The notes beneath the pieces are model-generated. The model did not search any database. It was not told the origin of the DNA and saw only the letters and a list, made by a program, of their open reading frames with translations. Below are positions 20,495 through 60,676 of a stretch of DNA of 64,000 nt, one piece after another; the first letter of the stretch is position 1, and the number at the start of each line of letters is the position of its first letter. Source of the stretch: an uncultured Clostridia bacterium (GTDB taxonomy: Bacteria > Bacillota > Clostridia > Christensenellales > Borkfalkiaceae); NCBI GenBank assembly GCA_947626575.1, contig CANQSR010000005.1:38848-102847 (forward strand). The letters are read 5' to 3'. The translations under genes and the position numbers were made by a program.

Positions 20495-20731
20495 TTCACG
20501 AAATTTGTTTTGCCTTTTTCTCGCTGTCCCCTTGAGGGGAAAGTGTCGCGCCGCCTTTGCGCGACCAAAGGGGTGTCGTAAATCTGCAAAACAAATTTCC
20601 GTGAGGGAAATGTTCTTTTGCGTCTTAACCTGCTTGTCCTCTTATTCGTTTCAACGGGCAACAAGCAGACAGGGCTCTGCAAATTGGGTCGCCCACGCCC
20701 GAAGTAAATTCGGGCTAAGGCAAGAAAATTT
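20495..20731 (-). other. Structured leader element, copy A2 (before lon)
   Basis: Read on the minus strand, the element opens with CTTGCCTTA, then the hairpin GCCCGAA-TTTAC-TTCGGGC, GGGCGACCCAATTTGC, a GCTTGTTG...GGACAAGC stem enclosing CCGTTGAAACG, and GTTAAGACGC. It ends in a long terminal hairpin whose arms are CCTCACGGAAATTTGTTTTGC-like and GCAAAACAAATTTCGTGAA. About 75 bases with further small palindromes lie between the arms. Sixteen bases with AAAGGAG then lead to the lon ATG. Confidence 0.65.
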
Positions 20732-20732
20732 A

Positions 20733-20884
20733 TTCACACGTTTTGTTGCAAGCAACAAAACGTCGTGAGGCGATTATGCTTTTGTGCCGGAAGGGCTTGG
20801 TTCCGATAAGATGTTCAACGGACAAGAAGCGCTTGACGCGCAAATTGAGGGCGAAAACCAAAATGCGATTTTGGTTATTCGCAA
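20733..20884 (-). other. Structured leader element, copy A1 (distal, before lon)
   Basis: The same architecture as A2 with mostly different stem sequences. Read on the minus strand: hairpin AACCAAAAT-CGC-ATTTTGGTT, CGCCCTCAATTTGC, CTTGTCCGTTGAAC...CGGAACCAAG, CCTCACG, then a short terminal hairpin ACGTTTTGTTGC-TT-GCAACAAAACGT and GTGAA. It lacks the insert found in the A2 terminal hairpin. Confidence 0.55.
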
Positions 20885-21240
20885 TCATTTGAGAATGTGT
20901 TGCGGAAAGCCTAAGCCCTACCCCCAACGGGGGGAGGGTGGCATGAGCAACGCGAGTGACGGATGGGGGGGGGAAGCCTAACTCCGTACCCCCCACCACC
21001 GCCCTGCGGGCGGAGCCTCCCCCCAAGGGGGTAGGCCTTACGCCATTCCGTCCGCGCGAGGCTCTTGTAACAATGTGGCCCTTGCCCACCCATTGAGGGG
21101 TGGGTGTCACCGAAGGTGACGGAAGGGGTGTTATACGAATGGAACGTCACCCCCTACCTGTCGCGGCGGAGCCGTGACATCCTCCCCCCTCAGGTATAAA
21201 GGGGGAGACAAGGTTGCCTCGCATCGCCCGCCCATGGCGC
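20885..21240. repeat. Intergenic repeat mosaic 3
   Basis: No gene is seen. GC-rich palindromic repeats such as CCCCCAACGGGGGGAGGGTGG and the GGTGTCACCGAAGGTGACGG hairpin unit are packed together; related copies lie at 875-903 and 39060-39150. Confidence 0.7.
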
Positions 21241-21350
21241 GCGGGTTTACACTATTATATCACACGTTTGGCCGCGTTTCAAACGATTTCCAAAAAAATT
21301 TCTCCGCCTCTTCGGGGAAGAGGGGAGAAATCCGTAATGTTTTCCGCGCA

Positions 21351-21725
21351 TCAAATGGAGATGAAATCGCTCCTGCCGAGCTGTTCGCCAAAGCCGAGCG
21401 AAATCAAAATTGCACGGTTGACCTTGGACATGGTAGCCGCCGAGAGTTCGCCGATGCGTGACATCAGCCGCTTTTTATCAATGGTGCGGATCTGTTCGAG
21501 CAGGATGACGGAATCCTTTTGCAGCCCGAATGCCTGCGGAAGTTCGATGTGCGTAGGCAGGCGGGCCTTGTGGATCTTGCTCGTCACGGCCGCCGCGATC
21601 ACGGTAGGGGAGTACTTGTTGCCCGTGTCGTTCTGCACCACGAGGACCGGGCGGATGCCGCCCTGTTCGCTCCCCACAACGGGGGAGAGGTCTGCATAAT
21701 AGAGTTCGCCGCGCTTGACCGTCAT
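21351..21725 (-). CDS. MazF/EndoA-type mRNA interferase, no visible antitoxin
   Basis: This 124-residue protein is a full-length MazF/PemK family endoribonuclease, most like EndoA (NdoA) of Bacillota, which cuts RNA at short specific sites. Seen: MTVKRGELYYADLSP, GGIRPVLVVQND (the conserved catalytic Arg) and AAVTSKI (the conserved Thr). An AAGGAG precedes the ATG. Its MazE-like antitoxin gene, normally directly upstream, is not there: the 170 bases upstream lead straight to the divergent tmk promoter. It may be controlled in trans, or the antitoxin may be lost. Confidence 0.93.
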   Translation of the reverse strand: MTVKRGELYYADLSPVVGSEQGGIRPVLVVQNDTGNKYSPTVIAAAVTSKIHKARLPTHIELPQAFGLQKDSVILLEQIRTIDKKRLMSRIGELSAATMSKVNRAILISLGFGEQLGRSDFISI

Positions 21726-21858
21726 ACTTTTCTCCTTTGTGAGCCATCCCCCGCTATCATTGTATGTAACGGGAAAATTTTCTGCTCACCGCAGGCTTAG
21801 TGTTGACAGCATACGCGGAAAATATACCCTTTCGCCGCGGCGGTTTGGCGCGGAAACC

Positions 21859-21887
21859 TTGACAAACCCACCCGCCTTTGCTATAAT
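21859..21887 (+). promoter_or_regulatory. tmk operon promoter, leaderless type
   Basis: TTGACA (21859-21864), a 17-base spacer and a perfect TATAAT (21882-21887), nine bases before the tmk ATG at 21897. There is no Shine-Dalgarno between them. Confidence 0.88.
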
Positions 21888-21896
21888 AGACGCAGT

Positions 21897-22529
21897 ATGA
21901 ACACCAAAGGCAAGTTTATCGTATTTGAAGGGACAGACGGCAGCGGCAAGACGACGCAGATGAAGTTGCTCGCCGAATACCTCTCCGCACGGGGCATCCC
22001 CGTCTCCATGACGCACGAACCCACGACGTCGCCCTTCGGCTCCCTGCTCCGCGACTGTATGTCCGGCAGGATAGATACCGATGAGCGCACCATCGCGGCG
22101 CTCTTTGCGGCCGACCGCCTCGACCATATCCAAAGGCCCGCAGACGGTATGCTCGCACGGCTGAATGAGGGCGAGACCGTCCTCTGCGACCGCTATTATT
22201 TCTCCTCCTTCGCCTACAACGGCGGGTTCGCGCCCCTCGAATGGGTCATCGAATTGAACCGCCCCGCAATGGAGATTCTGCGCCCCGACCTCGTGGTCTA
22301 TTTGGACCTGCCCGCCGAGGACGGCATGGCGCGGGTCGGCCGCCGCACCGAGCGGGAACGGTATGAAAATTTGGAGCGGCAGCGGCTCATCCGTGCAAAA
22401 TATTTCGAAGTGTTCGAACGCTTCAAGGATGAGGAAAATATCGCCGTCGTGGCGAGCGAACAGGACAGGATGCAGACGCAGGCCCAAGTCCGCCGCCTCG
22501 CCGACGGCCTGTTCGGAGGCAAGGCATGA
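21897..22529 (+). CDS. tmk: Thymidylate kinase
   Basis: A 210-residue dTMP kinase, making dTDP for DNA synthesis. The P-loop FEGTDGSGKTT is at residues 8-18, the DR(Y/H) substrate motif appears as CDRYYFSSFAYNG, and a lid-type RTERERYE segment is near 143. The start is fixed by the promoter, whose -10 box ends nine bases upstream. The stop overlaps the rimM start by four bases (ATGA), so it heads a five-gene operon tmk-rimM-ABC-permease-trmD. Confidence 0.97.
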   Translation: MNTKGKFIVFEGTDGSGKTTQMKLLAEYLSARGIPVSMTHEPTTSPFGSLLRDCMSGRIDTDERTIAALFAADRLDHIQRPADGMLARLNEGETVLCDRYYFSSFAYNGGFAPLEWVIELNRPAMEILRPDLVVYLDLPAEDGMARVGRRTERERYENLERQRLIRAKYFEVFERFKDEENIAVVASEQDRMQTQAQVRRLADGLFGGKA

Positions 22530-59728: not shown

Positions 59729-59950
59729 ATGTCGAAGGACGACGTCATCGAAGCGGAGGGCAGGGTGATCGAAGCGCTCCCCAATGCAACATTCAAAGTA
59801 CGGCTCACCAACGGCCATGTGATCACGGCATATATTTCGGGCAAACTCAGAATGAACTATATCCGCATCATCGAAGGCGATGCGGTGAAGCTCGAAATGA
59901 GTCCGTACGATCTGACCAAGGGCCGCATCACGTGGAGAAGCAAAAACTGA
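59729..59950 (+). CDS. infA: Translation initiation factor IF-1
   Basis: A 73-residue S1/OB-fold IF-1: MSKDDVIEAEGRVIEALPNATFKVRL, GHVITAYISGKLRMNYIRI and SPYDLTKGRI. GGAGG precedes. Confidence 0.98.
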   Translation: MSKDDVIEAEGRVIEALPNATFKVRLTNGHVITAYISGKLRMNYIRIIEGDAVKLEMSPYDLTKGRITWRSKN

Positions 59951-60029
59951 TCTGCGGTGCAGAACGCAGAGGGACGTGCGGCGGCGAAGCCGCATGTGAC
60001 AATATTATTCCGAACACGAGGTAAAAATC

Positions 60030-60146
60030 ATGAAAGTCAGACCTTCCGTAAAACCCATGTGCGATAAGTGCAAGGTCATCAAGAGAAACGGCAAAGTGAT
60101 GGTCATTTGCTCGAAAAACAAGAGCCATAAGCAAAGACAGGGCTAA
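60030..60146 (+). CDS. rpmJ: Ribosomal protein bL36
   Basis: A 38-residue L36 (MKVRPSVKPMCDKCKVIKRN...ICSKNKSHKQRQG) with Cys11, Cys14, Cys27 and His33 as zinc ligands. GAGGT precedes. The rpsM group follows only after a new promoter and 600 bases of leader and repeats. Confidence 0.97.
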   Translation: MKVRPSVKPMCDKCKVIKRNGKVMVICSKNKSHKQRQG

Positions 60147-60153
60147 AAATCAG

Positions 60154-60182
60154 TTGACAAGGACCTGTTTACGTGGTATAAT
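60154..60182 (+). promoter_or_regulatory. Promoter of the rpsM-rplQ (alpha) operon
   Basis: TTGACA (60154-60159), a 17-base spacer and TATAAT (60177-60182) form a near-perfect promoter about 600 bases upstream of rpsM. Confidence 0.85.
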
Positions 60183-60225
60183 AAACTTTGCTGTTTTTGG
60201 AAATAAATACAGTGAAGAACGTACA

Positions 60226-60375
60226 TGAAGCTGATTCCCGCAAAAATCCGTTGCGGGAAATCGGCTTGCTTTGCGCTTAAAAAGCCCCTTGGGGACCGAG
60301 ACCTGCCCCCTTGGGAGGGGGCGGGTGGCGCGGCTTTGCCGCGTCAGGTGGGGGTAGGCAGCAAGGAGTATTGAA
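60226..60375. repeat. Hairpin and repeat unit in the rpsM leader
   Basis: GATTCCCGCA and TGCGGGAAATC form a hairpin (60230-60262). It is followed by the GGTGGCGCGGCTTTGCCGCG unit (60324-60343) found also at 825 and 25431. No gene is seen. Confidence 0.65.
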
Positions 60376-60505
60376 GGCGCAAAAGCACATTTCCCTCACG
60401 GAAATTTGTTTTGCGAAATACGACACCCCTTTGGTCGCGCAAAGGCGGCGCGACACTTTCCCCTCAAGGGGACAGCGAGAAAAAAGCAAAACAAATTTCG
60501 TGAAC
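60376..60505 (+). other. Structured leader element, copy C (partial)
   Basis: Only the 3' part is present: GGCGCAAAAGCAC, the arm CCTCACGGAAATTTGTTTTGC, an insert with the GTCGCGC-AAAGGC-GGCGCGAC hairpin, and the arm GCAAAACAAATTTCGTGAA. The 5' part is replaced by another repeat. Confidence 0.6.
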
Positions 60506-60511
60506 CCATAC

Positions 60512-60676
60512 TAAATTTTCTTGCCTTAGCCCGAATTTACTTCGGGCGTGGGCGACCCAATTTGCAGAGCCCTGTCTGCTTCTTGTCCGTTGGAACGAAC
60601 GAGAGGACCAAGTAAGTTAAGGCGCCAACGCACATTTCCCTCACGACATTTTGTTGCCTGCAACAAAATGTGTGAA
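60512..60676 (+). other. Structured leader element, copy C2 (before rpsM)
   Basis: Complete short form: CTTGCCTTAG, hairpin GCCCGAA-TTTAC-TTCGGGC, GGGCGACCCAATTTGC, TTGTCCGTTGGAACG...GAGGACCAAG, GTTAAGGCG, CCTCACGACATTTTGTTGC-CT-GCAACAAAATGTGTGAA. About 110 bases then lead to rpsM. Confidence 0.6.

What the first reader, a model, noticed from the sequence alone, without database searches (positions are those of the whole stretch)
20495..60676. A dispersed structured leader element in sense orientation before lon, rbgA, adk and rpsM
Six copies (20495-20731 and 20733-20884 on the minus strand; 25976-26205, 58089-58312, 60376-60505 and 60512-60676 on the plus strand) share one order of parts: hairpin 1, C-C-CAATTTGC, a stem around CCGTTGAAC, GTTAAG-CG, CCTCACG, a terminal hairpin, and GTGAA. 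Hairpin 1 changes by compensation: GCCCGAA/TTCGGGC in A2 and C2, GGCGGAA/TTCCGCC in D, and an unrelated but perfect stem in A1 and B. The terminal stem also changes in both arms (AAATTTGTTTTGC versus ACATTTTGTTGC). All six point toward the next gene and three end 2-16 bases before its start codon. This fits a cis-acting RNA leader, perhaps one spread as a mobile element. I know of no such family.
Basis: partly seen in the sequence, partly recalled or inferred. Interest (0 to 1): 0.78.

Follow-up and report, generated by a model that had tools for sequence, protein, structure and literature searches.

The report
Gene-edge hairpin repeats in gut Clostridia
A family of foldable DNA repeats, with dozens of copies per genome in several members of one genus of likely rabbit-gut bacteria, sits with one fixed end against the edges of genes, most often just after a stop codon and in antisense, so it is likely an old mobile element rather than a leader switch for the genes behind it.

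Summary
The six copies are real (one is only a 3' part) and belong to a large family: 53 blastn matches in the 1.9-Mb genome, 73 with a covariance model. It was found in 31 of 41 genus genomes; in 121 genomes drawn from the order, only in genus members (3 of 121). Rfam has no match. Hairpins P1 and P2 covary strongly; the terminal palindrome keeps nearly wobble-free stems of many sequences; P3 has no covariation support. The leader reading fails genome-wide. Of 118 tail-most copies with a called gene on the tail side, 90 end within 40 nt of it: 72 at stop codons in antisense, 18 upstream of starts; heads do so in 3 of 108. The window's four loci are all start-side. Between related genomes, gene-edge slot and orientation persist while hairpins are replaced whole, head-side repeats turn over, and some copies decay. 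Best reading: BOX/REP-like modular interspersed repeats, likely non-autonomous mobile elements now mostly inherited in place. The mover is unknown: no Y1 transposase, reverse transcriptase or TnpB was found in this genome.

The parts
20733..20890 (-). Copy A1: full unit, P1 type b (GCGAATAACCAAAAT..), second core type, short terminal palindrome without insert (..ACGTTTTGTTGC/GCAACAAAACGT..), ends GTGTGAA at 20733; followed directly by A2
   Evidence: 106.3 bits
20495..20732 (-). Copy A2: full unit, P1 type a (GCCCGAA/TTCGGGC), first core type, terminal palindrome with other repeat DNA in its loop; GAA ends 16 nt before the lon ATG
   Evidence: 122.4 bits
25977..26205 (+). Copy B: full unit, P1 type a variant (GGCGGAA/TTCCGCC), first core type, terminal palindrome with insert; ends 2 nt before the rbgA ATG
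   Evidence: 113.9 bits
58081..58312 (+). Copy C: full unit, P1 type b, first core type, terminal palindrome with insert; ends 15 nt before the adk ATG
   Evidence: 133.8 bits
60373..60504 (+). Copy D1: 3' part only (end of core plus terminal palindrome with insert); P1, P2 and P3 region missing
   Evidence: not among the matches of the covariance model
60510..60676 (+). Copy D2: full unit, P1 type a, first core type, short terminal palindrome (ACATTTTGTTGC/GCAACAAAATGT); ends 113 nt before the rpsM ATG
   Evidence: (134 bits)
18166..20478 (-). lon, gene behind A1/A2
   Evidence: TIGR00763
26208..27059 (+). rbgA (ylqF), gene behind B
   Evidence: TIGR03596
58328..58963 (+). adk, gene behind C
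   Evidence: TIGR01351
60790..61158 (+). rpsM, gene behind D1/D2
   Evidence: TIGR03631

Best explanation
This is a genus-restricted family of modular, hairpin-rich interspersed DNA repeats that are likely non-autonomous mobile elements of the BOX/REP kind, not sense leaders of the genes behind them. A unit runs 5'-(TTCCAAT-like lead)-P1 hairpin-CAATTTGC-P2 hairpin-variable core-CTC-terminal palindrome-GAA-3'. Shown by counting: the 3' end (tail) usually lies against a gene edge, most often 0-10 nt after a stop codon in antisense, less often just upstream of a Shine-Dalgarno sequence, while the head faces other repeats. Inferred: units were inserted long ago into short gaps between genes by an enzyme not yet identified that would recognise the folded ends; since then they have mostly been inherited in place, duplicated in tandem in one orientation, and rewritten by recombination between copies, which would exchange whole hairpins and so keep stems paired with hardly any wobble. 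Also inferred: on the stop side the tail would place a strong hairpin at the mRNA 3' end directly behind the stop codon and could mildly affect mRNA decay or translation termination, but nothing here shows that the host needs it.
For: 53 blastn and 73 model matches in one 1.9-Mb genome; 31 of 41 genus genomes, 3 of 121 order genomes, all of the genus, 18 of 61 relatives by blastn, all of the genus. Tail within 40 nt of a gene in 90 of 118 tail-most copies, 72 stop and 18 start; head within 40 nt in 3 of 108. Stop-side genes checked by Pfam are real, 10 of 10 given (of 15 listed). Tandem, same-orientation arrays. P1/P2 covariation and matched tail arms with very little wobble. At 14 orthologous gene-edge slots of three related genomes, counted by eye, element, part or stub is in place in the same orientation, tails are replaced at 6 and P1 at 2. 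In G007 four of six slots are truncated or decayed while the flanks stay alignable. Empty or short gaps in relatives: secY-adk gap at most 26 nt in 12 of 28.
Against: No clean empty/filled site, no target duplication and no mover were found, so mobility is not shown. Y1, RT and TnpB are absent from this genome; other transposases and recombinases were not tested. Gene-adjacent copies are old and vertically shared. The persistence of slot and orientation, the conserved P1/P2 architecture and the somewhat better folding of the element strand (z -4.07 against -2.76; P1 G-U 8.1% against 2.0% on the complement) could also point to a function in RNA. In this genome start-side tails are not rare (14 against 19).
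Confidence: 0.66

Rival explanations
1. Sense cis-acting RNA leader (attenuator or riboswitch-like) controlling lon, rbgA, adk, rpsM and others, as first proposed.
For: All window copies are upstream of starts in sense. P1 and P2 covary. Sense strand of D2 folds better than shuffles, z -4.07. A consensus promoter at 60154-60182 would transcribe D1 and D2 in sense into rpsM.
Against: 72 of 90 near-gene tails are antisense at stop codons; no conserved core helix: P3 shows no covariation; genes differ between species (adk has a copy or recognisable tail in 2 of the 30 adk loci printed, by eye); no common function among the neighbours named; G007 has truncated or decayed copies at four of six slots.
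Confidence: 0.07
2. Host-useful 3'-end element: the terminal palindrome is kept behind stop codons to stabilise mRNA ends or to slow translation termination, as proposed for some REPs (recalled).
For: 59 of 72 stop-side tails lie 0-10 nt from the stop codon; slot and orientation persist while stems are replaced by other perfect stems; stems stay paired.
Against: Most stop codons have no copy; 10 of 41 genus genomes have no model match at all; decayed copies in G007; 18 near-gene tails are start-side; a short gap between genes alone leaves few other places.
Confidence: 0.15
3. Passive DNA-level palindromes: hairpins are neutral debris whose arms are kept perfect by template-switch correction during replication, with no enzyme and no selection.
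For: Almost no wobble in tail stems (3022 Watson-Crick, 5 G-T, 21 A-C, 106 other) and one G-U cell in the five inner P2 pairs of 64 sequences.
Against: P1 keeps one architecture over several stem sequences, and CAATTTGC and CTTNTTGTCC stay conserved between hairpins; the tail-to-gene polarity and tandem arrays are not explained.
Confidence: 0.1

Closest known systems
BOX elements of Streptococcus pneumoniae, with RUP and SPRITE (PMC3049150: abstract and the Results sections on families and on distribution read)
   Same: Modular, structured, intergenic, over 100 copies per genome (125 BOX), nearly confined to close relatives, orthologous insertions largely shared, variable module number, read there as parasitic elements that move slowly; SPRITE lies close to 3' ends of genes.
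   Different: Different sequence and module order; BOX has TIRs and TSDs, not shown here; BOX distances to genes are reported as gradually decaying, here the tail is pinned to gene edges with fixed polarity; whole-hairpin replacement at a kept slot is not described in the sections I read.
REP/BIME with RAYT (Y1) transposases (PMC2817692: abstract start and passages seen)
   Same: Palindromes in high copy, often in composites with other repeats; REPs near stop codons (recalled).
   Different: REPs are 20-40 bp with a GTAG- or CGTC-type tag (PMC3733652 abstract start); here about 150-240 nt with several hairpins; no Y1 protein in this genome; tandem units are in one orientation, not alternating.
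Stem-loop repeat families of the 40-genome survey (PMC2267715: outline and abstract)
   Same: Shows that families of repeated stem-loop sequences in intergenic DNA are common (92 families).
   Different: I did not compare sequences with those families.
Integron attC arrays (recalled)
   Same: Same-orientation tandem units with folded hairpins of variable sequence.
   Different: No cassettes and no single array site; copies are spread beside housekeeping genes; integrase not searched.

Membership tests
cis-acting RNA leader | located upstream of, and in sense with, the gene it controls | tested here: not met
   18 of 90 near-gene tails are start-side, 72 stop-side antisense
cis-acting RNA leader | conserved RNA fold with covariation | tested here: inconclusive
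   P1/P2 covary, P3 does not, wobble nearly absent in tail and P2
cis-acting RNA leader | transcribed, with effect on the downstream gene | not testable with these tools
   no expression data
REP/BIME (RAYT-mobilised) | Y1 (RAYT) transposase in the genome | tested here: not met
   PF01797: 0 in own genome (97% complete), 10 of 41 in the genus
REP/BIME (RAYT-mobilised) | short 20-40 bp palindrome with a GTAG/CGTC-type tag | tested here: not met
   units of about 150-240 nt with several hairpins
BOX-like modular interspersed repeat | dispersed intergenic copies made of exchangeable structured modules | tested here: met
   P1, core and tail types occur in different combinations; 73 matches in this genome
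BOX-like modular interspersed repeat | sequence homology to boxA/boxB/boxC | not tested
   no BOX sequence was fetched; no match in Rfam is the only hint
MITE | terminal inverted repeats and target-site duplication | tested here: inconclusive
   no clear TIR pair or duplication in pre-head and post-tail sequence; no clean empty site
MITE | related autonomous transposon in the genome | not tested
   only Y1, RVT_1 and the TnpB zinc-ribbon family were searched; no long insert among 175 tails
TnpB/IscB guide RNA element | TnpB-type nuclease in the genome | tested here: not met
   PF07282: 0 of 41 over cut-off; IscB was not searched as a family, and the Rfam search of the window (which should hold HEARO, recalled) gave no match
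Retroelement/SINE-like | reverse transcriptase available | tested here: not met
   PF00078: 0 in own genome, 6 of 41 in the genus
Integron attC | IntI-type integrase and gene cassettes | not tested
   integrase not searched; no cassette-like layout seen

The most novel reading that the evidence does not exclude
A new class of gene-edge element: a hairpin-folded strand, recognised by an enzyme that is neither a Y1 transposase, a reverse transcriptase nor TnpB, is inserted with fixed polarity directly behind stop codons and then grows as same-orientation arrays that trade whole hairpins, so that chromosomal gene ends carry small, recombining, integron-like arrays.
Probability: 0.2. Interest if true: 0.78.

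Novelty: new variant of a known kind. Interest (0 to 1): 0.48.

Why it matters
If true, one genus with dozens of sequenced species offers a structured repeat with fixed polarity at gene ends whose position is kept while its hairpins are replaced whole. That makes two questions testable by comparison alone: how dispersed structured repeats keep perfect stems, and whether hairpins directly behind stop codons are a relic of where insertion is tolerated or are kept for use. It also warns that compensated hairpin changes among dispersed copies are not by themselves proof of an RNA leader.

Tried and rejected
Sense-leader rule: rejected by gene context over 121 tail-most copies. RAYT/IS605, TnpB and reverse transcriptase as movers: no partner in this genome. 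Phage or plasmid carriage: 0 viral contigs for an exact core pattern; no blastn match in phages or plasmids for copy D2. A long autonomous parent: none among the 175 tails measured (search reach about 420 nt); the 5 of 180 without a called stem were read by eye and look truncated or interrupted by other repeats. Intrinsic terminator at the tail: no U-tract seen; the scan of 57440-60830 gave 3 terminator-like sites against 4.3 expected in shuffles, one of them (60564-60579) being the P2 hairpin of D2. A gene-calling model trained on uncurated ORFs gave shadow genes and was dropped, then replaced by one trained on 19 chosen ORFs of the window; it still starts rbgA at 26238 instead of 26208. Target-site duplication from pre-head and post-tail sequence: inconclusive. 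First-pass tail detection by exact words mostly failed and was replaced by alignment. Telling RNA from DNA by G-U counts was mixed: tail wobble-poor and strand-symmetric (1.2% against 1.6%), P1 richer in G-U on the element strand (8.1% against 2.0%), P3 ambiguous (13.5% against 11.0%); the tRNA yardstick (14.0% against 5.6%) rests on 7 tRNAs. Of 191 model matches, 180 were used: 5 were the same places in overlapping loci, 5 were weak echoes, 1 was cut by a contig end. Literature.
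Full report
WHAT IS THERE. The six copies were read directly and match one another by blastn. Five are full units; 60373-60504 is only the 3' part. NCBIfam names the genes behind them lon, YlqF/RbgA, adk and uS13 (rpsM), and the genes on the far side of the adk and rbgA gaps secY and trmD.

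FAMILY SIZE AND RANGE. Copy A2 as blastn query gives 53 matches in this 1.9-Mb genome. A covariance model (R1, from 51 copies, head to CTCACG, 128 positions) gives 73. In 41 genomes of the genus, 31 have at least one match and 10 have none; the highest counts are 77, 73, 71, 54, 49, 43 and 42. At most 84 candidates per genome were scored, so high counts may be low. In 121 genomes drawn from the order, with fewer candidates scored, 3 have matches, all in the genus; two other genus members in that draw have none. blastn of D2 found it in 18 of 61 relatives, all of the genus, and in none of the 24 from other genera. An exact core pattern over one genome for each of 84,980 species gave 93 stretches; the 80 listed are all titled 'uncultured Clostridia bacterium isolate Lapin-...'. 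That 'Lapin' means rabbit gut is my inference. Viral contigs: 0 for the same pattern. Phages and plasmids: no blastn match for D2. Rfam: nothing over gathering in the window, and one sub-threshold match to a CRISPR repeat model in a lax search of the lon copies.

ANATOMY. 5'-lead (often ..TTCCAAT..)-P1-CAATTTGC-P2-CTTNTTGTCCG..(P3 region)..TTAAGGCG..-CTC-terminal palindrome-GAA. P1 has an outer stem, an internal loop or bulge and an inner stem. Its letters come in several types: a (TTGCC-TTA-GCCCGAA.. or GGCGGAA..), b (GCGAA-TA-ACCAAAAT..), and in relatives GCGCGAGCAAAACC.., GCGCGTTGGAAAA.. and CTGCGCGGAGCAGGG..; some of these share loop letters (AAAACCACGCTTTT). Two main core types exist in this genome. 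The terminal palindrome has many different stems (45 different outer 8-mers among 175), and its loop often carries other repeat DNA.

COVARIATION. On 64 type-a copies from several genomes, P1 plus P2 (20 pairs) have 95.2% paired cells and 151 cells changed on both sides (35.3 in shuffles, 0 of 500 as high). The covariation score is 0.347 against 0.081 shuffled and at most 0.109 when slid. Two of the five measures do not exceed the shuffles: pairs with a change on both sides (9, reached by 119 of 500) and further pair types (21, reached by 446 of 500). The outer CAA/TTG part of P2 has no changes on both sides. The same test on P3 shows nothing: 0 double changes, and every shuffle pairs as well. 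The first alignment, with types a and b in one register, gave a weaker but like result, and RNAalifold on it found only P1. For the tail, 175 of 180 copies have a stem; 124 of 175 pair at 7 or 8 of the outer 8 bases, against 18-42 in 200 shuffles of the 3' arms. Wobble is nearly missing in the tail (3022 Watson-Crick, 5 G-T, 21 A-C, 106 other; stems were cut out by an aligner that punishes all mismatches alike) and in the inner P2 pairs. It is common in P3 (69 G-T, 17 A-C). Stems that change whole with hardly any wobble look more like exchange of complete hairpins or DNA-level correction than like step-by-step RNA selection. This is inference.

POSITION AND POLARITY. For 180 copies from this genome and relatives, genes were called with a codon model trained on 19 ORFs of the window. 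Of 121 tail-most copies, 118 have a called gene on the tail side. In 90 the tail end lies within 40 nt of it: 72 times at the stop codon of a gene read the other way (59 of them 0-10 nt away), 18 times upstream of a start (most at 16-21 nt). Head-most ends are within 40 nt of a gene in 3 of 108 (median 404 nt; Fisher p about 1.5e-33). Ten of the 15 different stop-side genes listed were given to Pfam and all ten have families over cut-off: glycerol-3-phosphate dehydrogenase, an AAA ATPase, a Na/H exchanger, Ppx/GppA, RecA, Hsp70, phosphate acetyl/butyryltransferase, a DeoR-type regulator, an ABC transporter, RecR. Between tandem genes the count is 60 with the tail at the stop against 23 at the start (p 6e-5), between convergent genes 22, between divergent genes 1. 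This genome alone has 19 stop-side and 14 start-side near-gene tails, the other genomes 53 and 4. So the four start-side loci of the window are a small sample and the leader rule does not hold. Limits: loci were picked from the top of capped, score-ranked lists; orthologous slots of three related genomes are counted more than once; genes were called by a simple model.

SLOTS OVER TIME. G006 contig 1 is colinear with part of G007 contig 1. At six gaps with a model match in one of the two, the other genome has an element, a part or a stub at the same gene edge in the same orientation. In G007 four of the six are truncated or decayed: one keeps an intact tail but lost its head, two are stubs, and one is at best a doubtful stub of about 13 nt. 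At one gap both genomes carry full elements of different subtype, and at one the core is shared but the tail differs (the G006 copy being broken by an insert). With a flank search across G006, G007 and G024 this becomes 14 slots. In six the tail has been replaced (for example L194/L205 against L210, with much the same body). In two P1 has been replaced with the tail kept (L217 against G006 contig 3; L219 against L204). These slot counts are mine, by eye, from the printed sequences. Between tail and gene there are sometimes short 3' ends of older tails (..CGCCGAAAC|TTTTCGCGCGAAAC..; TTTGTGAACCCC|TTTGTGAAC). Head-side DNA differs strongly between these genomes at the slots viewed. The secY-adk gap is 14-26 nt in 12, and at most 80 nt in 15, of 28 genomes measured (of 30 loci), and 858 nt here.

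HOW IT MOST LIKELY WORKS. Shown: many copies, limit to one genus as far as searched, conserved architecture, tail polarity, tandem arrays, whole-hairpin differences at the same slot, decayed copies beside flanks that still align. Inferred: old insertion into short gaps between genes, where few positions are tolerated; growth and loss mostly on the head side; exchange of hairpins by recombination between tandem or dispersed copies. The mover is unknown. This genome (97% complete) has no Y1 transposase and no reverse transcriptase domain, and no genus genome searched has the TnpB zinc-ribbon family over cut-off. Other transposase and recombinase families were not tested. An effect on mRNA ends on the stop side is possible, untested.

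AGAINST THIS READING. Persistence of slot and orientation, P1/P2 covariation, and better folding of the element strand of D2 (z -4.07 against -2.76 for its complement) would also fit a host function in RNA. No movement, target duplication or autonomous parent was seen. A consensus promoter (TTGACA-17-TATAAT, 60154-60182) would transcribe D1 and D2 in sense into rpsM, so at that locus the copies may well lie in a leader.

COMPARISON WITH WHAT IS KNOWN. The closest published kind is the pneumococcal BOX element: modular, structured, 125 copies, about half of the insertions shared by all strains, read as parasitic (PMC3049150; abstract and two Results sections read). A survey of stem-loop families in 40 genomes shows how common this broad kind is (PMC2267715, outline and abstract). 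REP/BIME goes with RAYT (PMC2817692, abstract start and passages), absent here. PMC12320835 was seen in passages only. The claim that many REPs lie close to stop codons is recalled. My literature searches listed no paper whose title or shown abstract describes this family; only open-licence papers are held, so this is weak evidence of absence.

VERDICT. A real, well-structured repeat family, not a sense leader as a rule. It is a new variant of the small interspersed repeat kind, with unusual tail-to-gene polarity and whole-hairpin replacement at kept slots.

Noticed in passing
window 25275-25369: ARAGORN calls a tRNA-Lys here, inside a mosaic of repeats between trmD and rbgA; it is probably a false call on repeat DNA.
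   Followed up: no
window 60154-60182: A 12-of-12 consensus promoter (TTGACA, 17 nt, TATAAT, with TG before the second hexamer) lies upstream of D1, D2 and rpsM.
   Followed up: partly
window 57473-57590 and about 25838-25960: Another repeat of the gaps, with AACTGCG../..CGCAGTT ends in opposite orientation at the two places, lies 3 nt after the secY stop codon and just before copy B.
   Followed up: no
window 20514-20585, 26124-26190, 58224-58295, 60416-60488 (approximate): The loops of the terminal palindromes hold other repeat DNA; relatives show the same slots with and without such inserts.
   Followed up: partly
window 26208 and L020 near 1753: Two genes have their ATG 2-4 nt after the tail end with no visible Shine-Dalgarno sequence.
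   Followed up: no
window 21285-21340: A terminator-like hairpin followed (on the minus strand) by T's lies at the end of a MazF-like gene (21351-21725 minus, weak matches), at the far end of the gap before lon.
   Followed up: no
L185, L186, L189 (G002): Head-to-head pairs of elements with tails pointing outwards, so that some gaps carry a copy at each side.
   Followed up: no
L057, L059, L060, L063 (G012, G026, G010, G032): A further core type (..GCCTTACGAAACA..ATTGATGCAC..) follows the type-a P1 in some relatives.
   Followed up: no
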